Shown: piece after piece, positions 1 to 14,975 of the stretch
How positions within the stretch are numbered: position 1 is the stretch's first letter
How the letters are laid out: each line of letters starts with the position of its first letter
Assembly (NCBI GenBank): GCA_913776795.1
Contig: CAJYRH010000321.1
Coordinates: 1-15,523, forward strand
Source of the DNA: an uncultured Pseudorhodoferax sp.
GTDB taxonomy: Bacteria > Pseudomonadota > Gammaproteobacteria > Burkholderiales > Burkholderiaceae
Length of the DNA: 15,523 nucleotides
Reading direction: 5' to 3'
Made by a program: the position numbers and the translations under genes
The notes under the pieces: generated by a model
What the model saw: only the letters and a program-made list of their open reading frames with translations
What the model was told of the DNA's origin: nothing
Databases searched by the model: none

Positions 1-575
1 GTCAGCAGGTGGATCCACGGCGTGGCCAGCATGAGGTACCAGGTCTGGCGCAGCCCACTGCCGACGTGGCTGGCCACCGTGTGCGTGAAGCTGGCGGGCC
101 AGAACATGAAGAACAGCGCCGAGGCCCCGTGCACCAGCACACCGAGCCGGATGAAGAAGGCCAACGGCTTGGCGGCGTCGGGGAACCAGCCGGAGCACCA
201 CCAGAGCATCGCCACCACGGCGGCGTGCCGCATCGGCCCCCACGGGTCGGACGGCGGCATCTCCGGCGCGATCATCGGCACCGCCAGTCCCAGCCCGGTG
301 CCCTGGCTGGGGTCGCCCACGGAGAAGCGGCCCGGCAGCTGCAGCGCCTGCATCCACCACAGGATGGTGTCGCCCCAGGCGGCCTGCAGCCAGGGCCGCA
401 TCCACAGCAGCAGCGCGCTGAAGAGCGCCGCCAGCACCACGCCCTGCAGCACCCGCTGCAACGGCAGCGTCTGGCGCCAGATGGCGCGGTGCTGGGCGAT
501 GGTGCCGCCCAGGTGGCCGCGCACACTCAGGCGCCGAAGGGCGGCGCGGGAACCGGCATGCAGGGACTTGGCCAT
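1..575 (-). CDS. Multi-pass membrane protein of the polysaccharide operon, partial (3' end outside window)
   Basis: The frame opens with ATG at 575 and runs off the left edge, giving 191 visible residues (MAKSLHAGSR...). I do not recognise the family. The first 40 residues are basic and polar. Hydrophobic stretches follow at about residues 41-58, 117-131 and 138-160, and another begins near 178, which suggests an inner-membrane protein with at least three or four spans. Residues 75-115 form a loop rich in Pro and Gly. Twelve bases separate its start from the stop of the YaiO-like gene, so it is very probably the sixth gene of the operon. It could assist polymer export or be an acyl- or other group-transfer membrane protein; nothing visible decides this. 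Codon usage matches the neighbours. Real coding is well supported; function is unknown. Confidence 0.75.
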   Translation of the reverse strand, partial: MAKSLHAGSRAALRRLSVRGHLGGTIAQHRAIWRQTLPLQRVLQGVVLAALFSALLLWMRPWLQAAWGDTILWWMQALQLPGRFSVGDPSQGTGLGLAVPMIAPEMPPSDPWGPMRHAAVVAMLWWCSGWFPDAAKPLAFFIRLGVLVHGASALFFMFWPASFTHTVASHVGSGLRQTWYLMLATPWIHLL

Positions 576-587
576 GGTGCGGGTGCC

Positions 588-1451
588 TCAGAAGCTGACG
601 AACAGGCCCACGCCCAAGGTGTGGCGCTTGTAGGTCGGATTGGAATAGCGCTCGGCCTGTGCGGTCAGTCCCCAGGTCGGCCCCAGCCACACGCGCCCCG
701 TCGCGGCCACGCTGTGGCTGCGGAAATCCACCAGCTGGGCGCCTGCGCCGATGGCCTGGTAGGCCTCGGTGCCGCTGGCCACGCGCAGGGCGAAGTAGCC
801 CACGCCGTCGCGCCCCACCGTCATGCTGGCGAAGGGCATGTGCGAGAAGACGTTCCCTGGCTGGCTGAGGTTGAGCACCACCCCCGCTTCGAGGACGACC
901 GGCGCCGGCAGGTACCAGGCTGCCGCCAGGCGCATGCCCGCCTCGCTGCGGTTGTGGTGCAGCGCTGCGCCGTAGACGGCGGCGGACGTGACCAGCTGGC
1001 CCTGCGACAGCCATTTGCGCGAGATCTGTGTATCGGAGCGCAGGATGGACCAGTTGGGCCCGCCCTCCCCCAGTGCCAGCGACTGCACCGCATACCAGCG
1101 GTCCGAGATCTGCAAGGTGTAGCTGCCGGCCGCCACGCCGCCGGTCTCGCCAAACTTGCGCTCGCGCAGCAGTTCGAGGTTCAGCACGTCGCCGTTGCGC
1201 AATACGATGGCACCGCGCACGTTCACCGCCTCGCCGTCCGGCAGGCCGGCACTGAGGTTGCTGCGCCAGGTCTGCAGGTCCCAGGTGCTGCGCGCCGACA
1301 CAGGTCCCGGCGCCGGTGCGGGAGCCGGCGCAGGTGCAGAAGGCTCCACGGGCAGAGGGCCGGCCGTCTGTGCCTGCGCCTGCGCGGCGCACAGCAGCCA
1401 GGCGAGCGTCGACGCACCGGTCAGGCGGCCGACACTGCGAAGCCGCCTCAT
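588..1451 (-). CDS. YaiO-like outer-membrane beta-barrel protein
   Basis: The product is 287 aa. Residues 1-28 form a Sec signal peptide (MRRLRSVGRL, hydrophobic core, then AQAQA with likely cleavage before Gln28 or Thr29). A Pro/Ala linker (APAPAPAPGP, about 39-50) follows. From about residue 60 there are alternating amphipathic strands, and the protein ends in Val-Ser-Phe, the C-terminal aromatic typical of Bam-inserted barrels. The strand pattern and context resemble the YaiO outer-membrane family; in Escherichia coli, yaiO lies beside a GT2 glycosyltransferase (yaiP) and a deacetylase-like gene (yaiS). I infer that it acts at the outer membrane in export or retention of the polymer. The ATG at 1451 is chosen because it overlaps the wecB stop by 4 nt (ATGA) and opens directly on a signal peptide; the frame extends further upstream, but only through wecB. 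Barrel assignment is firm, family name moderately so. Confidence 0.82.
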   Translation of the reverse strand: MRRLRSVGRLTGASTLAWLLCAAQAQAQTAGPLPVEPSAPAPAPAPAPGPVSARSTWDLQTWRSNLSAGLPDGEAVNVRGAIVLRNGDVLNLELLRERKFGETGGVAAGSYTLQISDRWYAVQSLALGEGGPNWSILRSDTQISRKWLSQGQLVTSAAVYGAALHHNRSEAGMRLAAAWYLPAPVVLEAGVVLNLSQPGNVFSHMPFASMTVGRDGVGYFALRVASGTEAYQAIGAGAQLVDFRSHSVAATGRVWLGPTWGLTAQAERYSNPTYKRHTLGVGLFVSF

Positions 1452-2620
1452 CGCGCGCCTGCCAGCACGTCGGCGATGCGCTGGGACGTGCGCCCGTCGC
1501 CGAACGGGTTGACGGCCTCGCGCATGCGTGCCAGTTCCCTGCCCTCGCCCAGCAGCCGCGTCACGCAGCCGACAATGCGCTGCATGTCCGTGCCCACGAT
1601 CATCCCGGCACCGGCCTCGATGAGTTCCGGGCGCTCGGTCGTGTCGCGCAGCACGAGCACCGGCCGCGACAGCGCCGCACCCTCCTCCTGGATGCCGCCG
1701 GAATCCGTCAGCGCCAGGGCGCTGTTCTGCAGGCACCACAGCAGCGCCGGGTAGTCCAGCGGCGGGCACAGGCACAGCCTGCCTTCCAGCTGCGTGGCCA
1801 GCACACCGAGCTCGGCGTGCACGGTGTCGGCCACCGCGGGGTTGCCATGCACGGGCCAGACCACGGCCAGGCGCGGATCGGCCTGCAGCAGCCGCGCCAC
1901 GGCGCGTGCGATGTCGCGGATGCCCGGGCCCCAGTTCTCGCGGCGGTGGGCCGTGACGGTGATCAGCCGCCCGTGCGCCAGCCAGGGCTGCAAGCGCTGC
2001 AGGGGCTCGGGCAGCACCAGCGTGCCGTCGTCCAGCAGGCTCTGCAACCGCGCCGCGCCGGTGAGGGCCGCGTCCACCGCGGTGTTGCCGACCACGTGCA
2101 CGGCGTCGGCTGCGATGCCCTCGCGCGCCAGGTTGGCGGCCGCGCCTGCGGTCGGGGCGAAGTGCCAGTGCGCCAGCCGCGCCGTCAGCTCACGGTTCTT
2201 TTCCTCGGGGAACGGCTCGCGCGGCTTGAAGGTGCGCAGGCCGGCTTCCACATGCCCGATCGGGATGTCCAAGTAGAAGGCCGCCTGGGCGGAGGCCAGC
2301 GTGCTCGTGGTGTCGCCATGCACGAGAACAGCCGAAGGCTGTGCCTTTTCGTAGACGGCGCTGAGGCTTTCCAGCAGCAGCGCATTCAAATGCGCCAGGC
2401 TGCCGTTGCGGCGCTCCAGCTGCAGTTCGAATTCGGGCCGGATGTCGAAGAAGTCGTACAGCGACTGGGCCATCTCGCGGTGCTGGCCGCTGTGCACCCA
2501 GGCGACCGCATGGCCGCGCCGGCGCAGTTCGGCATGGACCGGGGCCATCTTGATGATTTCTGGGCGGGTGCCGACCGAAATGAGAACGGGCCGCTCCGGC
2601 GGCGTGCGGGATGCTGTCAT
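1448..2620 (-). CDS. wecB: UDP-N-acetylglucosamine 2-epimerase (non-hydrolysing)
   Basis: This cytosolic enzyme interconverts UDP-GlcNAc and UDP-ManNAc. The product is 390 aa, a usual length for the family (about 370-390). Landmarks are SVGTRPEIIKMAP (15-27), HGDTTST (101-107), GHVEAGLRT (122-130), PFPEEKNR (136-143), TAHRREN (223-229), PVHGNP (256-261), TDSGGIQEE (305-313) and TERPE (328-332). Asp103, Glu125, Glu139 and His225 fall at the positions of the catalytic/substrate residues described for E. coli WecB (Asp95, Glu117, Glu131, His213). ATG 2620 overlaps the deacetylase stop by 4 nt; its own stop overlaps the YaiO-like start by 4 nt. No UDP-ManNAc dehydrogenase (wecC) lies in the window, so the product may be used as ManNAc or oxidised elsewhere. 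Its place inside the operon suggests that it supplies the donor sugar for the synthase at 5630-7123. Confidence 0.93.
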   Translation of the reverse strand: MTASRTPPERPVLISVGTRPEIIKMAPVHAELRRRGHAVAWVHSGQHREMAQSLYDFFDIRPEFELQLERRNGSLAHLNALLLESLSAVYEKAQPSAVLVHGDTTSTLASAQAAFYLDIPIGHVEAGLRTFKPREPFPEEKNRELTARLAHWHFAPTAGAAANLAREGIAADAVHVVGNTAVDAALTGAARLQSLLDDGTLVLPEPLQRLQPWLAHGRLITVTAHRRENWGPGIRDIARAVARLLQADPRLAVVWPVHGNPAVADTVHAELGVLATQLEGRLCLCPPLDYPALLWCLQNSALALTDSGGIQEEGAALSRPVLVLRDTTERPELIEAGAGMIVGTDMQRIVGCVTRLLGEGRELARMREAVNPFGDGRTSQRIADVLAGAR

Positions 2621-4539
2621 GGGGAGGGCGATGGGTTGGGAATCGAAGCGGTGGGCGTCGTCGCGCCGTGCACGGGCAGTTGCACGCGCAGCGTGGTGCC
2701 GGCACCGGCGACCACGCGCCAGAAATCGCCCTCGCGCGTGACCTCGGCCTGGCCCTGCAGGACGCGCGGCGCGTCGTAGCGGCGCGCCGGCAGCAGCCAG
2801 GCGAAGTGCGCAAGCGAGCGCGGGTGCTCCGCCTGCAGCCACTCGGCGCCGTCGGCGGCCCGTGTGCTCCAGTCGACGGCCAGCCGTTCGTTGGCGAAGT
2901 CGGCGTAGGCGGCCATGGTGATCCAGCGCAGTGCCCCGTCCGCCACCAGCTGCCTGGTGTGCTGCAGCCAGTCGCGGAAGGCGTCGGGGAACAGCGCAAC
3001 GCCTGGCGGGTGGAAGTACACCAGCCGGGCCGTGCGGTATTGGGCGCAGTAGTCGGCCACGTCCTTGAGCCAGGCGCCGATGTCGCGCTGCGAGATGCCC
3101 GCGAGGGAGGTCTCCTCGAAACTGGCGTGCGCGCCATAGCTCAGCACCGGAAAGGCCCACATGCCGGGGGGGCTGCGCTTGCCATCCTGGTAGCTGCGGG
3201 TCGGCGCCATGCCGATGTCGCCCGTGAAGTAGTAGGCCTGGATGCCCTGCTCGCGCAGCCATGGCGTGGTCCAGGCCGGGTGGTTTCCCAGGGGTGCAGA
3301 GTACTCGCGCACCGGCTTGCCGCTGGCGGACCGCACGGCCTGCAGGTTGCGTTCGATGAACGGGATGGAGACGTCCCGCTTCTGCTTGTCGACCAGGCGA
3401 CCGAAGGCGTTGTGGATCCACCCGCCATGGCTGCCAACCTCGTCGCCACGCGCCACGAAGCGGCGCACCCATGCCTGCATGCTGGCATTGCGGGCCAGGT
3501 CCATGCCCTGCCCGTCGCCGACGGTGTCGACGTCGGGCCCGGCCGTCAGGTGGATGGAGTACGGGCCCTGCTCGAACACCCCCAGCGCATCCAGCGTTTC
3601 GATGGCGGGCACCGCCGCCGCCGCGTCGACGTGCCAGTTCATGATCAGCGCGCCCTTGGCATCGGGCACCGGCGACAGCTGTGGCAGCCCGACCAGGTCC
3701 TGCGCGAAATAGCGCAGGAAGGCGTGCAGGAACAGGCCGTCGGTGCGCAGCTTGAGATAGGTCAGCGGCAGGTTGACGAACAGCACCTGGCCTTTGCCCA
3801 CGGTGTGCACGCCCGCCAGCAGGCTGCCCTCCTCGGCATGCATCAGCCGGTTGCCATCGAAGAGGCCGCGCGTCGTGAACACCGGGTAGCTGAGCCGCCC
3901 GTAGTGGTAGCCGATGACGGCCAGCGGCTCGTCCTCGCCGGGTGGCGGCTGGTGGCTGCTGAGCGGCTCTTCCTCGCCGTCGCGGATCAGCTTGCCCGGC
4001 GGAAGACGCAGCAGGGGCACCGCGCCTCCCTCGACCCACGCCACGTGCTCGCCGGACATGCGGCCGCGCAGCTCCTCGTACAACGCGTACGACACGCCGG
4101 CCAGGCCGGACAGACGCGACCGGCCGGGCGGGTAGTTGCCGTCCAGGTCCTCGGTGCCGGCATCGTGCACCAGCAGCAGGGGCGTGCCGGACCGCACGCG
4201 CTGGTTCAGCGCCGCGACGAGCGCATCGTTCATGCGGCGGTGCACCTGGTCGGGCAGGATCAGCGCCACGTCGTCGGAAGCGCCGCCTGCCCGCAGCAGA
4301 TCGGATGCGCGCAGCAGCGACAACTTGAAGCCGAGCTCGGCCGCGGCGTCCTGCCAGGCGTGCACGTGCGGATCGCCGGACGAGACTTCATCGGAGACCA
4401 GCAACGCAAGACGGGTGGCAGCCTGGTGCGGTCTGGCCGAACCGTTCAGCAGGCCGAACAGCACGAACAGTCCGACGGCTGCCAGCAGCAGCGCGCCGCG
4501 CACCAGCCAGACGCGCGAGGCAATGGGTTTCGCGTTCAT
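2617..4539 (-). CDS. Membrane-anchored extracytoplasmic polysaccharide deacetylase-like protein
   Basis: The product is 640 aa. It has one N-terminal signal anchor (about residues 12-31), so the rest should be periplasmic. Residues 43-280 form an alpha/beta domain with a Rossmann-like or glutaminase-like look (RLALLVSDE, VALILPD, LLLVHDAG, QVLFVNLPL). Residues 295-550 look like a NodB/CE4-type deacetylase barrel: NWHVD with Asp305 as possible metal ligand, SHGGWIH with His371 and His376, EYSAPLGNH (412-420), and YFHPPG (508-513). A two-domain layout with an extracytoplasmic deacetylase recalls PelA and PgaB, which remove N-acetyl groups from Pel and PNAG, but I cannot claim orthology. The last 90 residues form a small beta-rich domain and a Thr/Pro-rich tail. 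ATG 4539 overlaps the upstream stop (ATGA). The His spacing is five rather than the usual four; see findings. The fold class is fairly sure, the substrate unknown. Confidence 0.8.
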   Translation of the reverse strand: MNAKPIASRVWLVRGALLLAAVGLFVLFGLLNGSARPHQAATRLALLVSDEVSSGDPHVHAWQDAAAELGFKLSLLRASDLLRAGGASDDVALILPDQVHRRMNDALVAALNQRVRSGTPLLLVHDAGTEDLDGNYPPGRSRLSGLAGVSYALYEELRGRMSGEHVAWVEGGAVPLLRLPPGKLIRDGEEEPLSSHQPPPGEDEPLAVIGYHYGRLSYPVFTTRGLFDGNRLMHAEEGSLLAGVHTVGKGQVLFVNLPLTYLKLRTDGLFLHAFLRYFAQDLVGLPQLSPVPDAKGALIMNWHVDAAAAVPAIETLDALGVFEQGPYSIHLTAGPDVDTVGDGQGMDLARNASMQAWVRRFVARGDEVGSHGGWIHNAFGRLVDKQKRDVSIPFIERNLQAVRSASGKPVREYSAPLGNHPAWTTPWLREQGIQAYYFTGDIGMAPTRSYQDGKRSPPGMWAFPVLSYGAHASFEETSLAGISQRDIGAWLKDVADYCAQYRTARLVYFHPPGVALFPDAFRDWLQHTRQLVADGALRWITMAAYADFANERLAVDWSTRAADGAEWLQAEHPRSLAHFAWLLPARRYDAPRVLQGQAEVTREGDFWRVVAGAGTTLRVQLPVHGATTPTASIPNPSPSP

Positions 4540-5633
4540 GGCACCAACGCCTGCTCGCCCAGCACCGCAACTGCTGCGGCTGGCGCGACCGGTGCGACCG
4601 GCGCCACGCAACGCCCCTGCGCCTCGGCCCAGACGGTGCCGTGGATCTCCACCCCGGCGCCAATGTCGATGCGCGGCGCAGCCACGGTGGTCTGCGCTGC
4701 CGGCGACCCCAGCACGCAGCCGGCATCCAGGGCGATGGCCACTTCGGACATCAGCACCCCCTGCACCGTGCAGCCGGCGCCGAGTTCGGCCTCGCGCTCG
4801 ACGAACACATGGCCGTTGACCGTGCACCCCGGCCCCGCCGTGAACCGGCCGCGGACCTTGAGACTGCCGCCGACCATGCAACGCGGCCCCAGCGTCAGAT
4901 CGCCATGGCAGACCAGGTCGCCCTGCCAGGCGGTGCCTGCCGCGACCGTGAGCGCGCCGCTGCGGATGGCGCGGCGGCCCAGTGCATCCCAGCGCACGCC
5001 GGTCAGGGCGGCGCCGTCGCCCGGCACCGCGGCCAGCACGGGCCGCGGACCTTGCGGCAGGAACTGCATGCGTGGAGCGTGCAGCAGCATGAAACTGCTT
5101 CCGGGCGCCAGCACCAGCAGCCGCTCGGCCGTGGTGCGGCCCGCCAGATGACAGCCCTCGCCCACGAACACCTCTTCGCCATGGGCCCAGCGCAACACCG
5201 AGGCATGGGCTCCGATCCGCAGTGGACCACCGGCCCATAGCGCCTTGTAGATGCCGTGCTCGGCGGCCCGCAGGGCGCCTGCAGCGGCCACCTCGGCGTA
5301 GAACGACATGCCGTCCGGCAGGTGCAGATCGCCCTGGGCGTTCCACAGGCGGTGGCTGGTCTGGTCCTCCCGCTCCGCCGCGGTCAGCGGCAGCGCCTGC
5401 GCGGCTGGCGGACACACCACGATGGCGGTGGTGCCCAGCGTGTCCGCACCGGCGGACACCGCCGCGGCCAGGCGCGCGGCGAAGCTGCGCGCCAGGTAGG
5501 GCGGGTCGAGCGCATCGGCCTCGTCGATGGGCAGCGGCTGGACGTCGCTCGGGCGCAGCCACTCCACCAACGCCGGCAGCATGGGCAGCAGCATGACCGA
5601 GAACGTTGCGAGGAGCAGCAGCGCCAGTTTCAC
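4536..5633 (-). CDS. Membrane-anchored beta-helix protein (bactofilin-like or hexapeptide-like)
   Basis: The product is 365 aa. The first 22 residues (MKLALLLLATFSVMLLPMLP...) are a hydrophobic anchor or uncleaved signal. A mostly helical, Ala-rich region follows to about residue 130. From about 135 to 340 there are repeating short strands with turns of the type GAGCTV and GPGCTV. Over residues 240-308 the period is exactly 18 residues, with Cys at 252, 270, 288 and 306, as expected for coils of a beta-helix. The C-terminus is a low-complexity APVAPVAPAAA segment. The closest general description is a polymer-forming (bactofilin-like) beta-helix, although bactofilins are usually about half this length and mostly soluble. 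GTG 5633 is chosen because it overlaps the synthase stop by 4 nt (GTGA) and opens at once on the anchor; ATG at codon 14 is an alternative. I infer a scaffold in the export complex. The role is unproven. Confidence 0.72.
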   Translation of the reverse strand: MKLALLLLATFSVMLLPMLPALVEWLRPSDVQPLPIDEADALDPPYLARSFAARLAAAVSAGADTLGTTAIVVCPPAAQALPLTAAEREDQTSHRLWNAQGDLHLPDGMSFYAEVAAAGALRAAEHGIYKALWAGGPLRIGAHASVLRWAHGEEVFVGEGCHLAGRTTAERLLVLAPGSSFMLLHAPRMQFLPQGPRPVLAAVPGDGAALTGVRWDALGRRAIRSGALTVAAGTAWQGDLVCHGDLTLGPRCMVGGSLKVRGRFTAGPGCTVNGHVFVEREAELGAGCTVQGVLMSEVAIALDAGCVLGSPAAQTTVAAPRIDIGAGVEIHGTVWAEAQGRCVAPVAPVAPAAAVAVLGEQALVP

Positions 5634-7123
5634 GGCCCGGCCTTGGCGGGAGGCATGGCAACGGCCGCGCTGCTGCGGCGGTAGCGCACGGTCTTGTCCC
5701 ACTGGAACTTGCCGCCTGGCAGCCGGTCCGTGAGCGCCTGCTCGTACACCGAGCGCATGATGGCCACGGCGCTGACGATGAAGCCCAGGAACGAGAACGC
5801 CAGCAGCCGGATGCGCTGGCGCGAACGGTCCAGATGGGTCGCCGTGGCGATCTCGAAGAAGGCGGCGAAATTGCCCAGCGCACTGTGCACCATGAACGCC
5901 ATGACCATCAGGGCGGGTGCAAGCCACTGCATGCTGACGGTGAAGTACATCAACACGCTGAGCACCCAACCCAGCAGCAGCACCGGCGACATCATGTAGA
6001 CGCCCAGGAGCAGTGCGCCGTCGACGCGCTCGGTCCAGCGCAGATCGGGCTGGCGCAACAGGGCGGCCGTGTGGCGCACCATGGCCTGGTTGTGGCCCTT
6101 GGACCAGCGCTTGATCTGGCGCATGCGCACCGACCAGTTCTGCGGCACCTCTTCGTAGCACTCGGCCCGGTTGTGGTAGACCGTGCGCCAGCCGCCCAGG
6201 AGCAGCCGGTAGGTCAGGTCGGTGTCCTCGGCCAGGACGTCGTCGTGCCAGCCGCCCACGGACGCGAGGGCGCTGATGCGGATCCCTCCCACGGTGCCGC
6301 CGTATTGCGGCACCAGCCCGAGGTTCATGCGCGCCTGCTGGTCGACCTGGTAGCCGCCGGACCGCTCCAGGTCCAGCAGCCGGGTCAGCAGGTTGGCGCC
6401 GACGTTCAGCGGCACGACCCGGCCCATCACGGCACCGACCTCCGGGTCGAAGAAGGGCGCCATCAGGCGGCGGATCAGGCCACGCGAAGGCATGTAGTCT
6501 GCGTCGAAGACGATGATGAAGTCGGTGTCCACGGTCTCCGTGGCGTCCTTGAGCGCCGCCGCCTTGCCAGGCTTGCCGCCGACCCGATGGAACGGCCGGA
6601 TGCGGCCCGGAAACCGCGCCACCACCTCGTCGACGATCTCGCGCGTCCGGTCGGTCGACCGGTCGTTGACAGGGACCACCAGCATGCGGTCGGCCGGGTA
6701 GTCGACGCGCATGAGGTTCTCCAGGCAGTCGCGGATGACGTCCTCTTCGTTGTGCGCGGCGACGAACACCGTCACGCGCGGCCACTCGGCCTGGACCAGG
6801 CTGGCGTAGGGGTTGCGCTGGCGGCCGAACAGGCGGTTGAGCGAGAACACGTAGTGGCGGGCTGTGTACACAGTCAGCAGCACCATGACGAGGCCCATCA
6901 GCGTGCCGAGCGACCAGGCCCATGTGTCACCGAGCGGGCTGGAAATCGTCAACGACATGCCGGCGGCGTGCACCCCGGAATGGCTGGCCAGCGCGGCCGT
7001 TCCGACCATGACGCCCAGCAAACGACCGGCATGCATGGCCCAGCCCGGGACCGCGGGCAGGCGCCAGCAGGCACGCGGCTGTACATCGCGCCTGGTGGGT
7101 GGCGCATGGGGGTGGTGGTTCAA
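5630..7123 (-). CDS. Membrane GT2 family polysaccharide synthase/glycosyltransferase
   Basis: The product is 497 aa from TTG 7123. It is a processive-type GT2 enzyme: nucleotide-sugar fold from about residue 116 (RVTVFVAAHNEEDVI), Asn153-Asp154, DAD at 207-209 (metal/UDP binding), catalytic AED at 298-300, and QIKRW at 336-340, the Q-x-x-R-W motif of cellulose, hyaluronan and PNAG synthases. Membrane segments lie near 68-87, then three or four after residue 368 (about 369-395, 401-425, 440-458). It would polymerise and secrete the chain through the inner membrane. First gene of the operon. Start: the frame allows GTG 7180, TTG 7123 and ATG 7036. TTG 7123 has GGAAAGG six bases upstream, and the codons between 7123 and 7036 are strongly GC3-biased, whereas those before 7123 are not. 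Context with a YaiO-like barrel recalls E. coli YaiP. The synthase class is sure; the sugar and exact start are not. Confidence 0.88.
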   Translation of the reverse strand: MNHHPHAPPTRRDVQPRACWRLPAVPGWAMHAGRLLGVMVGTAALASHSGVHAAGMSLTISSPLGDTWAWSLGTLMGLVMVLLTVYTARHYVFSLNRLFGRQRNPYASLVQAEWPRVTVFVAAHNEEDVIRDCLENLMRVDYPADRMLVVPVNDRSTDRTREIVDEVVARFPGRIRPFHRVGGKPGKAAALKDATETVDTDFIIVFDADYMPSRGLIRRLMAPFFDPEVGAVMGRVVPLNVGANLLTRLLDLERSGGYQVDQQARMNLGLVPQYGGTVGGIRISALASVGGWHDDVLAEDTDLTYRLLLGGWRTVYHNRAECYEEVPQNWSVRMRQIKRWSKGHNQAMVRHTAALLRQPDLRWTERVDGALLLGVYMMSPVLLLGWVLSVLMYFTVSMQWLAPALMVMAFMVHSALGNFAAFFEIATATHLDRSRQRIRLLAFSFLGFIVSAVAIMRSVYEQALTDRLPGGKFQWDKTVRYRRSSAAVAMPPAKAGP

Positions 7124-7454: not shown

Positions 7455-8279
7455 CTAGAGGTCTGTGAACCGCGGCCCACGCCGCTCCATCGTCGCTGCA
7501 ACCGCCTCACGCTGGTTCGGGCTGCCGATCAGCCGCTGCTGCTCGACCGACTCGGCCAGCAGCAATTGGGCGTCGTCGCCATCGGCAGTCTGGTTCATGA
7601 GCCGCTTGGCGGCGCGCACGGCGTCGGGGTTGCGGCCGGCGATCTCGCGCGCCAGGGCCTGGGCGTCGGCCAGCGGGTCGGCCACCACGCGCGTTCCCAG
7701 GCCGATGCGGCAGGCTTCCTCGGCCTCAACGACGCGCGCGCTGAACACCAGTTCGCGCGCGATGTCGGCCCGCACCAGTTCGCGCATCAGCGCGATGCCG
7801 GCCATGTCGGGCACCAGGCCCCAGCGCATCTCCATGACCGACAGGCGCGCGTCGGCCGCAAGCAGGCGTACATCGGCACCCAGCGCCACCTGCAGGCCGC
7901 CGCCGAAGGCCACGCCCTGCACGGCCGCGATCACGGGCACGGCCAGCGCGCGCCAGCCCCAGGCCACCTGCTGCGGCCGGTTGGCCGGGCCATGCGTGCG
8001 CGCCCGCAGTTCGGTCAGCCCTTCGAGCTGCGCGCCCTCGCGCATCTTGCCGAAGCGCGACATGTCCAGCCCGGCGCAGAAGGCGCGGCCCTCCGCATGC
8101 AGCACCACGGCGCGCACACCGCGCGTGGCCTGCAACAGCTCGGTGGCGGCGACCAGGCCGTCGAACATGTCCATGTCCAGCGCGTTCATCTTGTCCGGCC
8201 GCGCGAGCCGGACCTGTGCGACGCCGTCGGCGTCCACGCGCACGGCCACGCGGCCATGCAGCAGGCGTTCTTCAAGCAA
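7455..8279 (-). CDS. Crotonase-family enoyl-CoA hydratase/isomerase (dienoyl-CoA isomerase-like acids)
   Basis: The product is 274 aa, normal for crotonases. It has the two oxyanion-hole segments AFCAGLD (66-72) and GVAFGGGLQ (122-130), and the CoA-binding helix region to the end. Glu150 (MEMRWG) and Asp158 (VPDMAG) are eight residues apart, the spacing of the catalytic Glu/Asp pair in delta3,5-delta2,4-dienoyl-CoA isomerase (ECH1 family). The third ECH1 acid (GGGVD) is Gln130 here. It may therefore isomerise a double bond or hydrate an enoyl-CoA. TTG 8279 is chosen because AGGAGG lies seven bases upstream and the reading begins MLEERLLHGR. It overlaps the SDR stop by 8 nt, so the last codons of the SDR serve as its ribosome site. 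Last gene of the operon, followed by the terminator. Family sure; exact reaction inferred. Confidence 0.9.
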   Translation of the reverse strand: MLEERLLHGRVAVRVDADGVAQVRLARPDKMNALDMDMFDGLVAATELLQATRGVRAVVLHAEGRAFCAGLDMSRFGKMREGAQLEGLTELRARTHGPANRPQQVAWGWRALAVPVIAAVQGVAFGGGLQVALGADVRLLAADARLSVMEMRWGLVPDMAGIALMRELVRADIARELVFSARVVEAEEACRIGLGTRVVADPLADAQALAREIAGRNPDAVRAAKRLMNQTADGDDAQLLLAESVEQQRLIGSPNQREAVAATMERRGPRFTDL

Positions 8280-9171
8280 GGCGTTGCCTCCTGTCCTTGG
8301 CGTCCTGGCCAGCGATGTTCTCGCGGGCGCGCTGCCAGTCCTCGCCGGTCCACGCGCGCATGCGCGAGAAGTTGCCGCCCGTGGCCTGGTACTGGCCACC
8401 GTCGATGGCGATCGTCTGGCCGTTGATGTAGTCGGCGCCCGGGCCCAGCAGCAGCACCGCGAGGTTGGCCAGCTCGGGCATGCGGCCGTTGCGGTCCATG
8501 GGGTTGCCTTCGGTCCTGTGCTCGCCGCCGCCCGGGTTCAGGCGCGCGCTCATGCCCTCGGTCGGGACCAGGCCCGGCGCGATGGCGTTGAAGCGGATGC
8601 CGCGGCCGGCCCATTCCACGGCCAGCGACTGCGTCATCGCGTGCAGGCCGGCCTTGGACATGGCGGACGGCACGGTGAAGGCCGATCCGTTCCAGACCCA
8701 GGTGGTCAGGATGGAGACCACCGCCGCGCTGCGCCCCTCGGCCAGCCAGCGCTTGCCGCAGTCCAGCGTCATCATGAAGCTGCCGCGGAACACGATGTTG
8801 GCGATGGCGTCGAAGCCGCGCGGCGACAGGTCCTCGGTGCGGCTCACGAAGTTGCCGGCCGCGTTGTTGACCAGGCCGTCGATGGCACCGCCGTCGGCCC
8901 AGATGCGGTCGAGCATGGCGGTGATCTGCTCCTCCTTGCGGATGTCGCAGCCCACGGCGACGGCGCGGCCGCCCTGCGGACCCGGCGCGGCGCTGAGTTC
9001 GCGTGCGGTGTCCTCCAGCACGCTCTCGCGGCGGCCGCAGATGTACACCGTGGCGCCAAGCAGCACCAGGGCCTCGCTGATCACGCGGCCCAGGCCGCTG
9101 CCGCCGCCGGTCACGAGGTAGCGCTTGCCTGCCAGCAGGCCAGGCTTGTACATCAGGTCGTCCAGGGTCAC
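8272..9171 (-). CDS. 2,4-dienoyl-CoA reductase-like SDR oxidoreductase
   Basis: The product is 299 aa. It is a short-chain dehydrogenase: nucleotide site TGGGSGLG (21-28), NADPH-type Arg pair in CGRR (45-48), and NNAAGN (102-107). It lacks YxxxK and instead has SAMSK, with Ser169 and Lys173, then EW and PGLVPTEG. This matches the DECR1 type of NADPH 2,4-dienoyl-CoA reductase, whose residues Asn148, Ser210 and Lys214 align with Asn107, Ser169 and Lys173. The DECR1 catalytic Tyr199 falls at Trp158 here (codon TGG), which is unexpected. The C-terminal 35 residues (GNFSRMRAW...) extend past the core. GTG 9171 is chosen because AAGGAG lies eight bases upstream; ATG at codon 7 is weaker. The start is 13 bp after the upstream crotonase stop. 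It would reduce dienoyl-CoA intermediates of unsaturated acids, if active. Confidence 0.88.
   Translation of the reverse strand: MTLDDLMYKPGLLAGKRYLVTGGGSGLGRVISEALVLLGATVYICGRRESVLEDTARELSAAPGPQGGRAVAVGCDIRKEEQITAMLDRIWADGGAIDGLVNNAAGNFVSRTEDLSPRGFDAIANIVFRGSFMMTLDCGKRWLAEGRSAAVVSILTTWVWNGSAFTVPSAMSKAGLHAMTQSLAVEWAGRGIRFNAIAPGLVPTEGMSARLNPGGGEHRTEGNPMDRNGRMPELANLAVLLLGPGADYINGQTIAIDGGQYQATGGNFSRMRAWTGEDWQRARENIAGQDAKDRRQRLA
8287..8292 (-). promoter_or_regulatory. AGGAGG ribosome binding site deciding a TTG start
   Basis: AGGAGG on the minus strand, inside the SDR C-terminal codons for Arg-Arg, stands seven bases before TTG 8279. No ATG or GTG with a comparable site is nearby, so the crotonase starts with TTG and is translationally coupled to the SDR. 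Confidence 0.75.
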
Positions 9172-9179
9172 GGTGTGGT

Positions 9180-9185
9180 CTCCTT
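9180..9185 (-). promoter_or_regulatory. AAGGAG ribosome binding site supporting GTG start of the SDR
   Basis: AAGGAG on the minus strand lies eight bases before GTG 9171. It touches the stop codon of the upstream crotonase, which favours translational coupling. Confidence 0.65.
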
Positions 9186-9985
9186 CAGCGCCCGGTGTAC
9201 CGGGGCGCGCGTTTCTCGAGGAAGGCGTTCATGCCTTCGCGGAAGTCGCCGGTCTGGGTGCAGAGCACCTGGTTGCGGTCCTCCAGCGCGATCACGGCCT
9301 CCATGCTGGGCGCGTCGATGGCCAGTCCCAGCGCGTCCTTGGTCAGCCGCAGCGCCACGGGCGTGGCGCGCAGCATGTCCTCGGCCAGCGCCTGCGCATC
9401 GGCCTGCAGTTCGGCCAGCGGCGCGACGCGGCTCACCAGGCCCAACCCATAGGCGCGCTGCGCCTCCATGAAGCGGCCCGTCAGCAGGTACTCGGCCGCG
9501 ACCGAGCTGCCGACCATGCGCGGCAGGAAGTAGCTCACGCCCACGTCGCAGGCCGACAGGCCGATGCGGATGAAGGCTGCGTTCATGCGCGCGTCCGGTG
9601 TGGCCAGGCGGATGTCCGAGGCCAGCGCGAGCGCGAAGCCACCGCCGCTGGCCGCACCCTGCACGACGCTGATGATGGGCTGCGGGCAACGCCGCATGGC
9701 CAGCATGATGTCGCGGATGCTCTTTTGCTTCTCGAGCATCTCTTCCACGCCGCGGGCGCCGCCGCCCTGCGCTGTCGTGTCCTTGATGTCCAGCCCGGCG
9801 CAGAAGGCGCGGCCCGCGCCCTGCAGCACGACCACACGCGCGCTGCTGCGCGCGTTGAGGCCCTCGAAGTAGTTGCGCAGGGCATCGGTCAGCGCCGGAT
9901 CGAGCGCGTTCAGCCGCTCGGGCCGGTTCATGGTGAGCCAGGCGACGCCGCCACGCTCCTCGGTCAGGAGAACCTCCGCGCTCAC
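9185..9985 (-). CDS. Enoyl-CoA hydratase/isomerase family protein
   Basis: The product is 266 aa, full length for a crotonase. Oxyanion-hole segments are AFCAGLD (60-66) and GAASGGGFALA (110-120); the tail FLEKRAPRYTGR resembles the usual crotonase C-terminus. The classical hydratase acids are not clear: the segment AFIRIGLSACDVG (137-149) keeps one acid, Asp147, but has no Glu at the usual position before GL. This suggests an isomerase or another crotonase reaction rather than a standard hydratase. GTG 9985 is chosen because it overlaps the acyl-CoA dehydrogenase stop by 4 nt (GTGA); no strong ribosome site precedes it, in line with coupled translation. It acts in the cytosol in the acyl-CoA pathway of this operon. 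Family certain, reaction uncertain. Confidence 0.9.
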   Translation of the reverse strand: MSAEVLLTEERGGVAWLTMNRPERLNALDPALTDALRNYFEGLNARSSARVVVLQGAGRAFCAGLDIKDTTAQGGGARGVEEMLEKQKSIRDIMLAMRRCPQPIISVVQGAASGGGFALALASDIRLATPDARMNAAFIRIGLSACDVGVSYFLPRMVGSSVAAEYLLTGRFMEAQRAYGLGLVSRVAPLAELQADAQALAEDMLRATPVALRLTKDALGLAIDAPSMEAVIALEDRNQVLCTQTGDFREGMNAFLEKRAPRYTGR

Positions 9986-11130
9986 AGCGCGCGCGAGATC
10001 ACTTCTTTCATGATCTCGTTGGTGCCGCCAAAGATCCGCTGGATGCGGGCGTCGGTGTACATGCGTGCCACCAGGTACTCGTTCATGTACCCGTAGCCGC
10101 CGAACAGCTGCAGGCATTCGTCGACCACGCGACCCTGCGCCTCCGAGCCCCAGAGCTTGGCCATGGAGGCGGTGGCGGTGTCGAGCTTGCCGGCCACCAG
10201 GTCTTCGACGCAGCGGTCGATGAAGGCGCGGCCGACCTTGATCTGGGTGGCGATCTCCGCCAGCTTGAACTTGGTGTTCTGGAACTCGGCCACGGGCTTG
10301 CCGAAGGCCTTGCGCTCGCGCACGTAGTCCAGCGTGGCGGTGTAGGCGCCTTCCATCGCGGCCAGCGCGGCGACGCCGATGATGAGACGCTCGTACGGCA
10401 GGTCGCCCATCAGCTGGAAGAAGCCCTGGCCTTCCTTGCCGCCGAGCAAGGCGCTGGCCGGGACGCGCACGTCGTCGAAGAACAGTTCGGAGGTGTCCTG
10501 CGCCTTCAGGCCGATCTTGTCCAGCACGCGGCCGACGCGAAAGCCCGCGCGGTCCTGCGTGTCGACGACCAGGATGGAGGTGCCCTTGGCGCCCTGCGTG
10601 GGGTCGGTCTTGGCCACCACCAGCACCACGCCGGCCAGAAAGCCGTTGGAGATGAAGGTCTTGGAGCCGTGCAACGCGTAGCCGCCCTCGACCTTGTCGG
10701 CGCGCGTGCGCACGCCCTGCAGGTCCGAACCGGCCCCGGGCTCGGTCATGGCGATGGCGCCGACGAGCTCGCCACGCGCGAGCTTCGGCAGGTAGTGGCG
10801 CTTCTGTTCGTCGGTACCGTGGTTCAGGAAATAGTGCGCCACGATGGAGTGCACGCCCACGCTCATGCCCGACAGCGCGCGGCGCGACATCTCCTCGTGG
10901 ATGATGGCCTCGTGGCGGAAGTCGCCACCACCACCGCCCCACTCCTCGGGAATGTCCACGCACAGCAGGCCGAGTTCGCCGGCCTTGCGCCACAGTGCGT
11001 GGCCCACGTGGCCCGCCTTGCGCGCAGCCTCGTCGTGCGGCTGCACCTCGGTCTCGATGAAGCGCACCACGTTGTCGCGGAACAGCTCCAGGTCTTCGTC
11101 CATCCAGGAGCGGCGGAAATCGATCGTCAT
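9982..11130 (-). CDS. Acyl-CoA dehydrogenase, long-chain/isovaleryl type
   Basis: The product is 382 aa. This is a soluble FAD enzyme that makes the alpha-beta double bond in acyl-CoA. Visible signatures are AMTEPGAGSDLQG (127-139), TFISNG (158-163), the C-terminal flavin segments QLFGGYGYMNEY (341-352) and RIFGGTNEIMK (365-375). The usual catalytic Glu of medium-chain enzymes (in an EGT motif) is Gly368 here, while Glu247 in DLPYERLIIG sits where LCAD and isovaleryl-CoA dehydrogenase carry their base. Enzymes of that class accept branched or long chains, which fits the racemase in the same operon. ATG 11130 is 14 bp after the ligase stop and has a weak purine-rich site before it. It passes electrons to ETF, which is not encoded here. 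Family and base assignment are good; the substrate is inferred. Confidence 0.95.
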   Translation of the reverse strand: MTIDFRRSWMDEDLELFRDNVVRFIETEVQPHDEAARKAGHVGHALWRKAGELGLLCVDIPEEWGGGGGDFRHEAIIHEEMSRRALSGMSVGVHSIVAHYFLNHGTDEQKRHYLPKLARGELVGAIAMTEPGAGSDLQGVRTRADKVEGGYALHGSKTFISNGFLAGVVLVVAKTDPTQGAKGTSILVVDTQDRAGFRVGRVLDKIGLKAQDTSELFFDDVRVPASALLGGKEGQGFFQLMGDLPYERLIIGVAALAAMEGAYTATLDYVRERKAFGKPVAEFQNTKFKLAEIATQIKVGRAFIDRCVEDLVAGKLDTATASMAKLWGSEAQGRVVDECLQLFGGYGYMNEYLVARMYTDARIQRIFGGTNEIMKEVISRAL

Positions 11131-11144
11131 GGCTCGTCTCTCTT

Positions 11145-12701
11145 TCAGTTCACCTTGCGCGTGCGGTCTTTCCAGTAGGGCTCGCGCAGCACGAATTTCT
11201 GCAGCTTGCCGGCCGGCGAGACCGGCAGCTCGGTACGGAACTCCACGCTGCGCGGGCATTTGTACCCCGCGATCAGCGTCTTGCAATGGGCGATCACGGC
11301 GGCCTCGTCGATGTGCGCGCCCGGGCGCTGCACGATGACGGCGTGCACGCGCTCGCCCCACCGGTCGTCGGGCACGCCGATCACCGCGGACATGGACACG
11401 CCATCGAGCTGGGCCAGCGCGTTCTCGACCTCGGCCGAATACACGTTCTCGCCACCGCTGACGATCATGTCCTTGATGCGGTCGACCACGTAGAGGTAGC
11501 CCTCCTCGTCCAGCATGCCGCCGTCGCCGGTGTGCATCCAGCCGCCACGCAGCGCAGCGTCTGTCTCAGCCGGCTTGTTCCAGTATCCCTGCATGACCAT
11601 CGGGCCGCGCGCGCAGATCTCGCCGACCTGGCCGGGCGGCAACTCGTTGTTCTCGGAGTCGCGGATGCTGATCTCGGCGATCGGCACCGACTTGCCGGCC
11701 GAGCGCAGGCGCTTGGCCTGGTGCGGGCCGGGCAGGTGGTCGTCCGGCTGGAGCACGGCGATGGTGGGCGCCAGTTCGGTCATGCCGTAGGCCTGGCAGA
11801 ACTGCACGCCGGGCAGCGCCGCCATCGCCTGGCCGAGCAGCGTGGCATCGATGGGCGCGGCGCCGTACAGCACCATGCGCAGGCTCTTGAGGTCGAATTC
11901 GGCGAAGCGCGGGTGTTCGATCAGCCGCTTGACCATGGTCGGCACGAGGAAGGTTTCGGTCACCTTCTCGCGCGCGATGGCGTCGAGCACCGCCACCTCC
12001 TCGTAGTAGGGCACGATCACCTGGGTGGCCAGGCGCAGCACCATCTGCAGCGACAGGCCGCAGCCCGCGACATGGAAGAACGGCGCCGTCACCAGCGCCT
12101 GCACCTGCCAGGTGCGCGGTACGGCGGCAGCCGACGCCAGCCCGTTCAGGTACAGATTGGCGTGGGACAGCATCACGCCCTTGGGCCGGCCTGTGGTGCC
12201 GCCCGTGTACATCACGGCGGCCAGGTCGTCGCGCTCGCGGCGCAGGTCTTCCACCGGCTCGGCGGCGGCCACCAGGTCCTCGAAGGAGAGCATGCCTTCG
12301 GGCGCGGGCTCCTCGCCGACGTAAACCAGGGTCTTGAGCGACCTGGACAGGTCGCGCAGTGCGGCGACCTGCCCGGCGAAGAACTTGTCGACGAGCAGGA
12401 TGCGGGTGTCGCAGTCGTCCAGCGAGTAGGCGATCTCCTGCGGACTCCAGCGCACGTTGACGGGATTGATCACGCCGCCGCCCCACCAGGTGCCGAACAG
12501 GTATTCGACGTAATGGTCGGAGTTCATGGCCAGCATGGCCACGCGGTCGCCCGGCGCCATGCCGAGCTGGCGCAGCACGGCAGCCACGCGCATCACACGG
12601 TGGTGCAGCCGCGCATAGCTGTTGCGGCGCGCGCCGAACACCACGGCCGTCGCCTGTGGCTTCTCCCGCAGCGCCCGGTGCAGGGCCTGGGTCAGTTGCA
12701 T
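11145..12701 (-). CDS. AMP-forming acyl-CoA ligase (fatty-acyl-CoA synthetase family)
   Basis: The product is 518 aa. It activates a carboxylic acid with ATP and CoA. Adenylate-forming signatures in order: phosphate loop YTGGTTGRPKGVMLSH (165-180), APFFHVAG (206-213), YGAAPI (279-284), YGMTE (305-309), HTGD (390-393), the hinge DRIKDMIVSGGENVYSAEVE (407-426) and the catalytic lysine at 499 in SPAGKLQK. The length and the PFFHVAG segment place it with medium/long-chain acyl-CoA ligases rather than acetyl-CoA synthetase. ATG 12701 has GAGGAG six bases upstream. The gene follows the racemase by 28 bp and precedes the dehydrogenase by 14 bp. As the only CoA-activating enzyme in the operon, it probably carries out the first step. 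The acid it uses cannot be read from the sequence. Confidence 0.95.
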   Translation of the reverse strand: MQLTQALHRALREKPQATAVVFGARRNSYARLHHRVMRVAAVLRQLGMAPGDRVAMLAMNSDHYVEYLFGTWWGGGVINPVNVRWSPQEIAYSLDDCDTRILLVDKFFAGQVAALRDLSRSLKTLVYVGEEPAPEGMLSFEDLVAAAEPVEDLRRERDDLAAVMYTGGTTGRPKGVMLSHANLYLNGLASAAAVPRTWQVQALVTAPFFHVAGCGLSLQMVLRLATQVIVPYYEEVAVLDAIAREKVTETFLVPTMVKRLIEHPRFAEFDLKSLRMVLYGAAPIDATLLGQAMAALPGVQFCQAYGMTELAPTIAVLQPDDHLPGPHQAKRLRSAGKSVPIAEISIRDSENNELPPGQVGEICARGPMVMQGYWNKPAETDAALRGGWMHTGDGGMLDEEGYLYVVDRIKDMIVSGGENVYSAEVENALAQLDGVSMSAVIGVPDDRWGERVHAVIVQRPGAHIDEAAVIAHCKTLIAGYKCPRSVEFRTELPVSPAGKLQKFVLREPYWKDRTRKVN

Positions 12702-12729
12702 GCTCGTCTCCTCTCGCCGTACCGCGCCT

Positions 12730-13812
12730 TCAGCGGCCCGCCCAGCGCGCCAACAGGGCCTGCGCGTCGTGCGGCGACACGGCCGGCGGCAGCTCGGGCG
12801 GGGTGCGGCTGAAGCGCGGCGCCGGCGCGGGCTGCACCAGGCCGCCAGCCTCGGCGAAGGTGCCGCGCGCACGGTTGTGCGCATGGGCCGGGGCCTCGTC
12901 CCAGTCGAGCACCGGCGCGAAGCAGGCGTCCGTGCCTTCCAGCAGCGTGCACCATGCATCACGCGTGCGCGTGCGGAACAGGTCGGCCATGCGCAGCTTG
13001 AGCAGGGGCCAGCGGGCCTGGTCCAGCTGGGCATCGAAGGCCGGGTCTTCTGCGATGCCGCAGCGCTCGCGCAGCAGCGCGTAGAACTTCGGCTCGATCG
13101 CTCCGATGGCCACGTACTTGCCATCGGCGCAGGCGTAGGTGTCGTAGAAATGCGCGGCACCGTCGAGCAGGTTCTCGCCGCGCTGGTTGTTCCATTGGCC
13201 TGCAGACTTCATGCCGTACATCATGGCCGACAGCAGCGCTGCGCCGTCGGTCATGGCCGCATCGATGACCTGGCCCCGGCCCGATCCCTTGCTCTCGTGC
13301 AGCGCCGCGAGGATGCCGAAGGCCAGCAGCATGGCACCGCCCCCGAAGTCGCCCACATAGTTGAGCGGTGGTACCGGCGTTTCGCCGGAACGGCCGATGG
13401 CGTGCAGCGCACCGCTGATGGCGATGTAGTTGATGTCGTGCCCCGCTGCACGTGCCAGCGGGCCGTGCTGGCCCCAGCCCGTCATGCGGCCGTAGACCAG
13501 GCGCGGGTTGCGCGCGAGGCAGACGTCCGGCCCCAGCCCCAGCCGCTCCATCACGCCGGGACGAAAGCCCTCGATCAGCACGTCGGCGCGCGCGATGGTC
13601 TGCAGGAGCTGCGCGGCCGTGCCTTCGGCCCGCAGATCCAGCGACAACACCGTGCGTCCGCGCGCCAGGATGTCGTGCGGATTGCGCTGGGTTCCTGGCC
13701 GCTCCACCCGCAACACTTCGGCGCCCATGTCGGCGAACAACATCGCGCAGAAGGGCCCCGGGCCGATGCCCGCCATCTCGACCACCCGAAGTCCCTGCAA
13801 GGGTCCTGCCAT
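12730..13812 (-). CDS. Alpha-methylacyl-CoA racemase (CaiB/BaiF family III CoA-transferase fold)
   Basis: The product is 360 aa. It epimerises the 2-methyl centre of acyl-CoA esters so that the S form can be dehydrogenated. The N-terminus [19 protein letters not shown] (7-25), [16 protein letters not shown] (81-96) and [13 protein letters not shown] (108-120) are typical of AMACR/MCR rather than formyl- or carnitine-CoA transferases. The racemase triad known from the Mycobacterium tuberculosis enzyme (His126, Asp156, Glu241) is seen as His125 in AGHDINY, Asp155 in VGDFGGG and Glu240 in [10 protein letters not shown] 13812 has AGGAGG eight bases upstream. It is the first gene of the operon and diverges from the TTT transporter. 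Its presence is the best clue that the pathway handles a methyl-branched acid. Confidence in racemase over transferase is high, as transferases need an Asp nucleophile in a different context. Confidence 0.93.
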
Positions 13813-13820
13813 CTCCTGCG

Positions 13821-13826
13821 CCTCCT
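13821..13826 (-). promoter_or_regulatory. AGGAGG ribosome binding site of the racemase
   Basis: A consensus AGGAGG on the minus strand, eight bases before ATG 13812, fixes that start although the frame stays open further upstream to about 13926. Confidence 0.75.
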
Positions 13827-13839
13827 GTGACCGGCATCT

Positions 13840-13862
13840 GCCAGCCTTGTCCGATGGCTGGC
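13840..13862. promoter_or_regulatory. Inverted repeat GCCAGCC-N9-GGCTGGC, candidate operator
   Basis: Perfect 7-bp arms (13840-13846 and 13856-13862) surround a 9-nt centre. The repeat lies 28-50 bp upstream of the racemase start. A direct repeat GGCATCT (13833-13839 and 13860-13866) overlaps both ends. The form suits a dimeric regulator or a leader hairpin. Confidence 0.45.
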
Positions 13863-13930
13863 ATCTTGGCGCCGCAGCGGGACGGCGGCATCGTCGGAAC
13901 GGACGAAGTTGCCGGGTTAGGGTCATCCTC

Positions 13931-13951
13931 AGTGGTCAGGCCACTCGACCA
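13931..13951. promoter_or_regulatory. Nested inverted repeats in the divergent promoter region, candidate operator
   Basis: AGTGG (13931-13935) and CCACT (13941-13945) are perfect arms with a 5-nt centre. Overlapping them, TGGTC (13933-13937) and GACCA (13947-13951) form another pair. The TGGTC/GACCA pattern resembles GntR-type sites in general form only. The position is 44-64 bp upstream of the transporter start, so it could control both directions. Confidence 0.42.
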
Positions 13952-13994
13952 ATGTTGCAATCGCGGCCACTTCGACCCCAAGAGGAGACACGGC

Positions 13995-14975
13995 ATGCAA
14001 AGACGCCATTACCTGACGCGCACGGCTGGCGCCGTCGCCGCGCTCGCCACGCTCGCATGGGGCCTGCCGGCCCTGGCTGCCTGGCCCGACCGTCCGATCA
14101 CGCTGATTGTGCCCTGGGGCGCAGGCGGCGGCACCGATGCCGTGGCCCGCATCATCGGCGCCGAACTGGAGAAGGAACTGAAGCAGCCCGTCAACGTGGT
14201 CAACCGCACGGGCGGCAGCGGCGTGGTGGGCCACCAGGCCATCGCCTCGGCCGCGCCGGACGGCTACACCATCGGCATCCTGACGGTGGAGATCGGCATG
14301 ATGCGCCACGCCGGGCTGACCCAGCTTTCCGGCGCGGACTACACGCCGCTGGGCCTCATGAATTTCGACGCCAACGCAGTCCTGGTGCGGGCCGATTCGC
14401 CGATCAAGACCGCTGCCGACCTGCTGGCCGCAGCCAAGGCCAGCCCGGGCAAGATGAAGGCAAGCGGCACGGGACAGGGCGGGATCTGGCACCTCGGCCT
14501 GGCGCAATGGCTGGTGGACAACAAGCTGCCCGGCAATGCCATTGCCTGGGTGCCGAGCCAGGGGGCGGCGCCCGGCCTGCAGGACCTGCTCGCCGGTGGC
14601 GTGGACGTGGTCTCATGCTCGCTGCCCGAGGCCCGCGCGCTGATCGAGGGCGGCAAGGTGCGCCCCCTGGTCCTGCTCGGCTCCAAGCCCGACGGCATCT
14701 TCCCGCAGGTGCCGCTGTACACGGACGCCAGCGGCAAGATGTGGAACGCGGGCGCCTGGCGCGGGATCGCGGGCCCCAAGGGCCTGCCCAAGGACGTGGG
14801 CGACCGGCTCTCGGCCGCGCTCAAGAAGATCTTCGACGGTGCCGGTTACCAGGATTTCCTGAAGTCGCGCGGCTTCGGCGCGCTCTACGCGGCCCCGTCG
14901 GACTTCGGCAAGTTCATGGCCGACAAGGACGCCGATTTCGCCACCGCGATGAAGGCCGTCGGCATCGCCAAGTAA
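13995..14975 (+). CDS. TTT transporter periplasmic binding protein (TctC/Bug family)
   Basis: The product is 326 aa, the normal length of Bug proteins. Residues 1-28 are a signal peptide ending in ALA before AWPDRPI. The start MQRRHYLTRT contains an Arg pair followed by His-Tyr-Leu and looks partly Tat-like, though Sec export is also possible. Bug landmarks are PDRPITLIVPWGAGGGTDAV (31-50), the TGGSGVVGHQAIA segment and PDGYTIGI, the loops that hold the carboxylate ligand in known Bug structures. ATG 13995 has GAGGAG eight bases upstream. It is the first gene of the transporter operon, divergent from the racemase with 182 bp between starts. It should capture an organic acid in the periplasm for the TctA/TctB permease. 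Ligands of Bug proteins vary widely, so the solute is inferred from context only. Confidence 0.95.
   Translation: MQRRHYLTRTAGAVAALATLAWGLPALAAWPDRPITLIVPWGAGGGTDAVARIIGAELEKELKQPVNVVNRTGGSGVVGHQAIASAAPDGYTIGILTVEIGMMRHAGLTQLSGADYTPLGLMNFDANAVLVRADSPIKTAADLLAAAKASPGKMKASGTGQGGIWHLGLAQWLVDNKLPGNAIAWVPSQGAAPGLQDLLAGGVDVVSCSLPEARALIEGGKVRPLVLLGSKPDGIFPQVPLYTDASGKMWNAGAWRGIAGPKGLPKDVGDRLSAALKKIFDGAGYQDFLKSRGFGALYAAPSDFGKFMADKDADFATAMKAVGIAK

What the first reader, a model, noticed from the sequence alone, without database searches (positions are those of the whole stretch)
1..7123. Uncharacterised synthase-dependent exopolysaccharide operon with a YaiO-like barrel, ManNAc supply and a periplasmic deacetylase
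A processive GT2 synthase, a membrane-anchored beta-helix protein, a membrane-anchored deacetylase, a UDP-GlcNAc 2-epimerase, a YaiO-like barrel and an unknown membrane protein are packed in one operon. The first five genes are joined by four 4-nt stop/start overlaps (5630-5633, 4536-4539, 2617-2620, 1448-1451). The set does not match Pel, PNAG, alginate or cellulose operons as I know them: there is no TPR porin, no c-di-GMP PilZ protein and no Wza/Wzc. The epimerase points to a ManNAc-containing, partly deacetylated polymer.
Basis: partly seen in the sequence, partly recalled or inferred. Interest (0 to 1): 0.72.

Follow-up and report, generated by a model that had tools for sequence, protein, structure and literature searches.

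The report
Uncharacterised YaiO-type exopolysaccharide operon
A Pseudorhodoferax-like bacterium carries a conserved but apparently unstudied set of genes that most likely makes a sugar polymer, removes acetyl groups from it and exports it through a small outer-membrane barrel, in a layout unlike the well-studied biofilm polymer systems.

Summary
Five complete minus-strand genes joined by four 4-nt overlaps encode a processive GT2 synthase, an anchored beta-helix protein, an anchored NodB-fold deacetylase, WecB and a YaiO barrel; a sixth (membrane protein) is cut by the window edge. In close relatives the operon continues with a lipoprotein of (alpha/alpha)6 glycosidase fold, a second deacetylase and sometimes a second lipoprotein. 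It is a real module: 20 of 24 loci examined hold GT2 directly followed by the beta-helix gene; the only YaiO of 13 of 13 cluster genomes lies in it; WecB is linked in 19 of 20. By the tests run it is not PNAG, Pel, cellulose or Nfr/NGR; alginate was not tested directly. It works most like Nfr/NGR (WecB-dependent synthase plus barrel) combined with Pel/PNAG-style deacetylation, but no TPR protein was found, and the deacetylases carry an invariant His where, by my alignment, the catalytic-base Asp is expected. E. coli yaiS-yaiP-yaiX-yaiO may be a distant analogue, on weak sequence evidence. Polymer chemistry, deacetylation and export are inferred. New variant of a known kind; moderate interest.

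The parts
5630..7036 (-). g1: inner-membrane processive GT2 glycosyltransferase (start uncertain; TTG at 7123 possible)
   Evidence: PF13641/PF00535 over cut-off; DRSTD, DAD, AEDTD and QIKRW motifs, kept in 21 of 21 cluster GT2 sequences aligned (window plus 20 loci)
4536..5633 (-). g2: membrane-anchored beta-helix (bactofilin-like) protein
   Evidence: Bactofilin below cut-off alone, at E<=0.01 in 37 of 40 relatives; hydrophobic segment 5-23; directly after GT2 in 20 of 20 loci that hold GT2
2617..4539 (-). g3: membrane-anchored NodB-fold polysaccharide deacetylase with an N-terminal GATase-like domain
1448..2620 (-). g4: WecB-type UDP-GlcNAc 2-epimerase
   Evidence: TIGR00236 371.8 bits, cut-off 210.15
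588..1451 (-). g5: YaiO-family outer-membrane beta-barrel
   Evidence: TIGR04390 109.7 bits, cut-off 32; PF19413 42.1 bits, cut-off 23.9
1..575 (-). g6: membrane protein of no named family, cut by the window edge (273 aa in L002)
   Evidence: no Pfam/NCBIfam match; conserved in 18 of 24 loci; alignment A5

Best explanation
A synthase-dependent exopolysaccharide system. WecB (g4) makes UDP-ManNAc from UDP-GlcNAc; the inner-membrane GT2 (g1) polymerises N-acetylhexosamine, probably including ManNAc, and passes the chain to the periplasm; the anchored beta-helix (g2) and the membrane protein (g6) guide it or assist the synthase; the deacetylases g3 and g8 (g8 known from relatives) remove N-acetyl groups; the (alpha/alpha)6 lipoprotein g7 (known from relatives) trims or clears chains; the YaiO barrel (g5) lets the partly cationic polymer out. 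Shown here by sequence or model: gene set, conservation, synthase motifs, epimerase family, barrel family, deacetylase fold. Inferred: ManNAc in the polymer, deacetylation, the pore role of YaiO, and the roles of g2, g6 and g7.
Against: One cluster (G705/L068) has no linked WecB, although that genome has two copies elsewhere. Several cluster loci lack a recognisable deacetylase (L059, L060, L061, L068, L070, L071), so deacetylation is not a core step; L061 is a 5.4 kb contig. Motif 1 of the deacetylases is non-standard. No evidence at all on the polymer itself.
Confidence: 0.65

Rival explanations
1. The polymer is a GlcNAc/GlcN (PNAG-like) chain; WecB feeds another glycan or balances UDP-sugars, and ManNAc is not in the polymer.
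For: g1's best named family is PgaC/IcaA (125.4 bits, cut-off 422.3) and E. coli PgaC is its best E. coli match (26.7% over 356 aa, 119 bits). 13 of 20 cluster genomes have another WecB copy over cut-off.
Against: WecB linked in 19 of 20 genomes and the only copy in 7.
Confidence: 0.25
2. The product is a cell-bound coat, sheath or wall-linked glycan rather than a released matrix polymer.
For: No TPR scaffold found; anchored or lipoprotein partners; a g3 relative is named from Sphaerotilus, a sheathed genus (recalled).
Against: Nothing in the sequence decides; this rival does not exclude the best explanation.
Confidence: 0.3
3. g3 and g8 are not active deacetylases but binding proteins or enzymes of another type, because the base Asp of motif 1 is replaced.
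For: WHxD instead of the TFDD of PgaB or IDVD of ArnD; PF01522 below cut-off for g3; the NodB-fold rows include titled pseudoenzymes (6hpa, 7bkf).
Against: H303, D305, H371, H376, H510 in 63 of 63 and R448, E475 in 62 of 63 suggest an active site under constraint.
Confidence: 0.2
4. YaiO is not the export pore but an outer-membrane accessory; the polymer leaves by another route.
For: No structure or export experiment for YaiO was found in the searches.
Against: Only recognised outer-membrane barrel in the cluster, present in 18 of 24 loci by tblastn and, by family model, also in G257 where tblastn had missed it.
Confidence: 0.25

Closest known systems
Nfr / NGR system of E. coli (NfrB, NfrA, YbcH with WecB)
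   Same: GT2 synthase with processive motifs, outer-membrane barrel, dependence on or linkage to WecB (passages)
   Different: No MshEN domain on g1 (NfrB has it), no NfrA_C protein in 19 of 19 cluster genomes, no TPR or DUF4434 match; deacetylases and beta-helix added
PNAG system (PgaABCD)
   Same: g1 is 26.7% identical to PgaC over 356 aa; deacetylase HxxxxH spacing as in PgaB
   Different: g1 far below the PgaC/IcaA cut-off; no TPR porin; g3 motif 1 and domain layout differ
Pel system, PelA (CE21)
   Same: g3 layout (mixed alpha/beta domain, NodB-fold domain, beta-rich tail) resembles PelA as described in PMC12022489 (passages; no direct structural comparison made)
   Different: No fused hydrolase domain in g3; motif 1 differs; no PelB-like TPR protein found
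E. coli yaiS-yaiP-yaiX-yaiO
   Same: GT2, hexapeptide-type helix protein, a deacetylase and a YaiO barrel side by side
   Different: Weak sequence links: YaiP 26-28% and a poorer match to g1 than PgaC; E. coli YaiO and YaiX pieces have no significant direct match to g5 or g2, YaiS none to g3; no WecB there; yaiX is interrupted in K-12

Membership tests
YaiO outer-membrane barrel family | match to TIGR04390 over cut-off | tested here: met
   g5 109.7 bits, cut-off 32
WecB non-hydrolysing UDP-GlcNAc 2-epimerase | match to TIGR00236 over cut-off | tested here: met
   g4 371.8 bits, cut-off 210.15
Nfr/NGR | synthase of the NfrB family (NF008411) | tested here: not met
   not among g1's matches at E<=1; NfrB itself 1332.7 bits
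Nfr/NGR | MshEN c-di-GMP domain on the synthase | tested here: not met
   absent from g1; present in NfrB
Nfr/NGR | NfrA outer-membrane protein (NfrA_C) | tested here: not met
   0 of 19 cluster genomes; the control E. coli rings
Nfr/NGR | WecB supplies UDP-ManNAc | tested here: inconclusive
   WecB linked in 19 of 20 genomes; use by the synthase not testable here
PNAG (Pga/Ica) | PgaC/IcaA synthase (TIGR03937) | tested here: not met
   125.4 bits, cut-off 422.3
PNAG (Pga/Ica) | TPR-containing porin in the operon | tested here: not met
   no TPR match in the six window proteins or g6-g9 of L002
Cellulose (Bcs) | CelA/BcsA synthase (TIGR03030) | tested here: not met
   65.5 bits, cut-off 699.1
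Pel, PelA-type deacetylase | hydrolase domain fused to the deacetylase | tested here: not met
   the modelled 640 aa of g3 hold an anchor, alpha/beta, NodB-fold and beta-rich parts only
Pel, PelA-type deacetylase | motif 1 HxDxD | tested here: inconclusive
   g3 NWHVDA, g8 NWHVDDGD; register not fixed by structural superposition
CE4/NodB deacetylases | NodB fold | tested here: met
CE4/NodB deacetylases | PF01522 over the gathering score | tested here: not met
   g3 19.2 bits, cut-off 23.1
CE4/NodB deacetylases | Asp-Asp motif 1 with base and metal Asp | tested here: not met
   WHxD in place of TFDD; H303 and D305 invariant in 63 of 63
Alginate | Alg8 synthase and AlgE porin | not tested
   no direct search made; no alginate model appears in g1's NCBIfam list
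Synthase-dependent EPS system (general kind) | polymer made by the synthase and exported | not testable with these tools
   needs mutants and polymer analysis

The most novel reading that the evidence does not exclude
A separate lineage of synthase-dependent polysaccharide export in Gram-negative bacteria, in which an inner-membrane beta-helix takes the place of the TPR scaffold, a YaiO barrel is the pore, and paired deacetylases with a His in the base position make a cationic mannosamine-containing polymer; the E. coli yai genes would be a reduced branch of it.
Probability: 0.3. Interest if true: 0.68.

Novelty: new variant of a known kind. Interest (0 to 1): 0.5.

Why it matters
It would give a function to the YaiO barrel family, for which the text searches made here (listings, and one passage) showed no reported glycan role, and would show that TPR scaffolds can be dispensed with in synthase-dependent export. 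It adds genomic support for ManNAc-based polymers beyond Nfr/NGR and names testable residues in an unusual deacetylase family. A partly deacetylated mannosamine polymer would be an unusual cationic biofilm material.

Tried and rejected
No whole genome is held for the window; nearest named relatives are Pseudorhodoferax-like Comamonadaceae. PelA and Agd3 are not among the rows shown for g3, which excludes nothing. Rfam: no match at gathering score in the window. The stretch upstream of g1 in window and L001-L003 was aligned; I saw no clear shared promoter motif. A Rubrivivax cluster (psc1) suggested by a text search includes wza/wzy-type genes and was set aside (passages). Text searches: (the last too broad to be useful); no listing showed this operon, but most hits were not opened and most subscription papers are not held. 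Loci counted as misses: L055 and L058 (lone g8-type gene), L063 and L064 (weak g2 hit). Five further marginal g2 hits (G305, G313, G421, G452, G485) were not fetched.

Full report
WHAT IS THERE. They encode a GT2 synthase with processive motifs, an anchored beta-helix protein, an anchored deacetylase-like protein, WecB and a YaiO barrel, both over their cut-offs, and the first 191 codons of a membrane protein of no named family. Only two segments of complete g6 pass a simple hydropathy threshold, so its topology is open. Overlaps of this kind are ordinary in operons; the stronger evidence for a functional unit is conservation.

THE OPERON IS LARGER THAN THE WINDOW. The closest loci found are Variovorax boronicumulans DE0202 (L001), Pseudorhodoferax aquiterrae (L002) and Pseudorhodoferax sp. 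Leaf267 (L003), with g3 at 83, 83 and 76% identity. There the operon continues with the rest of g6 (273 aa in L002), a lipoprotein g7 (417 aa), a second deacetylase g8 (737 aa, 37% identical to g3 in alignment A3) and, in L001 and L002, a g7 paralogue g9. g6 to g9 of L002 have no Pfam or NCBIfam match at E<=0.1.

CONSERVATION. I examined 24 loci (L001-L004, L049-L064, L068-L071) that had been chosen by hits to g2 or g3, so the sample favours those genes. GT2 is present in 20 of 24 and g2 follows it directly in all 20. Over all 24 the counts are g2 22, WecB 19, YaiO 18, g6 18, g8 13, g3 12, g7 11, g9 5. The order g1-g8 is complete in 8 of 24. Genes are partly inverted in L054 and L060. In terms of searches: of 13 genomes with a g3 match among 250 of the family, 11 hold the cluster and 2 do not; of 13 with a g2 match among 250 of the order, 6 hold it, 2 fetched ones do not, and 5 marginal ones were not fetched.

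Three further tests. A g6 profile hit 6 of 300 genomes of the order, all 6 in the cluster; four of these genomes (G002, G257, G266, G351) had given rows to the profile, and this sample overlaps that, so the fresh evidence is G089 and the new G1156 (which has WecB, GT2, g2, YaiO, a deacetylase and g7) and the lack of hits outside the cluster. A g2 profile hit 5 of 369 genomes of the class and 3 of 299 of the phylum at E<=1e-10; all of them hold the cluster genes, G705 without WecB nearby; some of these genomes had also given rows. The YaiO model, run on 13 of the 20 cluster genomes, found one YaiO each (in G164 as two pieces of one frame), always in the cluster, also in G257 where tblastn had missed it. 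The system is uncommon but coherent.

EPIMERASE. In 20 cluster genomes WecB is present in all, linked to the cluster in 19, and the linked copy is the only one over cut-off in 7. In G1156 the linked gene is on the opposite strand. The exception, G705, has two copies elsewhere. The Nfr study used a similar linkage argument and proposes UDP-ManNAc as substrate of NfrB (PMC8669469, passages; PMC8669472, passages). This supports, but does not show, ManNAc in the polymer.

WHAT IT IS NOT. g1 is far below the PgaC, CelA and NodC cut-offs and NfrB is not among its matches. It has no PilZ or MshEN domain, and no PilZ place lies within 250 kb on the cluster contig in 8 relatives (some contigs are short). 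NfrA_C is absent from 19 of 19 cluster genomes searched. Control by c-di-GMP through other proteins is not excluded; GGDEF/EAL genes were not searched.

E. COLI ANALOGUE. yaiS, yaiP, yaiX and yaiO lie together in MG1655. The link is by gene content more than sequence: YaiP is 26-28% identical to g1 over 212-271 aa, but PgaC matches g1 better (119 against 52.8 bits); E. coli YaiO hits the same family model but not g5 directly, and the YaiX pieces and YaiS have no significant match to g2 or g3. YaiX relatives are annotated as acetyltransferase or LbetaH protein. The text searches showed no function for this operon; a yaiO mutant is named among strains without phage phenotype (PMC8594841, one passage).

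VERDICT. A real, conserved, apparently unstudied EPS operon and a new variant of synthase-dependent systems. Its novelty lies in the combination of YaiO barrel, anchored beta-helix without a TPR protein, unusual deacetylases and linked WecB, not in any single enzyme.

Noticed in passing
L002 10001-11923: g3 of P. aquiterrae has an in-frame TAG in this assembly (reading from 10001 stops at 11071); some g3/g8 places in G184, G061 and G248 also show an in-frame stop. Assembly error or decay not resolved.
   Followed up: no
L003 20078-21816: An extra g3-type copy downstream of the operon, in two overlapping pieces.
   Followed up: no
L004 (Cupriavidus sp. P-10 plasmid pMTS1): The cluster, rearranged (g4 g3 g1 g2 g9 g5 g6), sits on a 1.6 Mb plasmid, the only plasmid record hit by g3.
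   Followed up: partly
L001 and L002, downstream of g9: A 679-aa LuxR/MalT-type regulator (named by eye) on the opposite strand, 99.6% identical between the two loci and not found in L003.
   Followed up: partly
window 7455-13926: Upstream on the same strand lie genes that look like acyl-CoA catabolism (enoyl-CoA hydratases, SDR, acyl-CoA dehydrogenase, ligase, CoA-transferase; named by eye). The hydratase is also upstream of g1 in L001-L003 at 90, 90 and 71%.
   Followed up: partly
window 13452-15447: On the plus strand, ORFs that look like a tripartite tricarboxylate transport receptor and a small TctB-like protein (by eye).
   Followed up: no
L055 and L058: g8-type deacetylase genes without the rest of the cluster in 20 kb, so the deacetylase family has other settings.
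   Followed up: no
L066 2845-4873: E. coli K-12 yaiX is split by IS2A; a related stretch is found in 4882 of 5426 E. coli genomes.
   Followed up: partly
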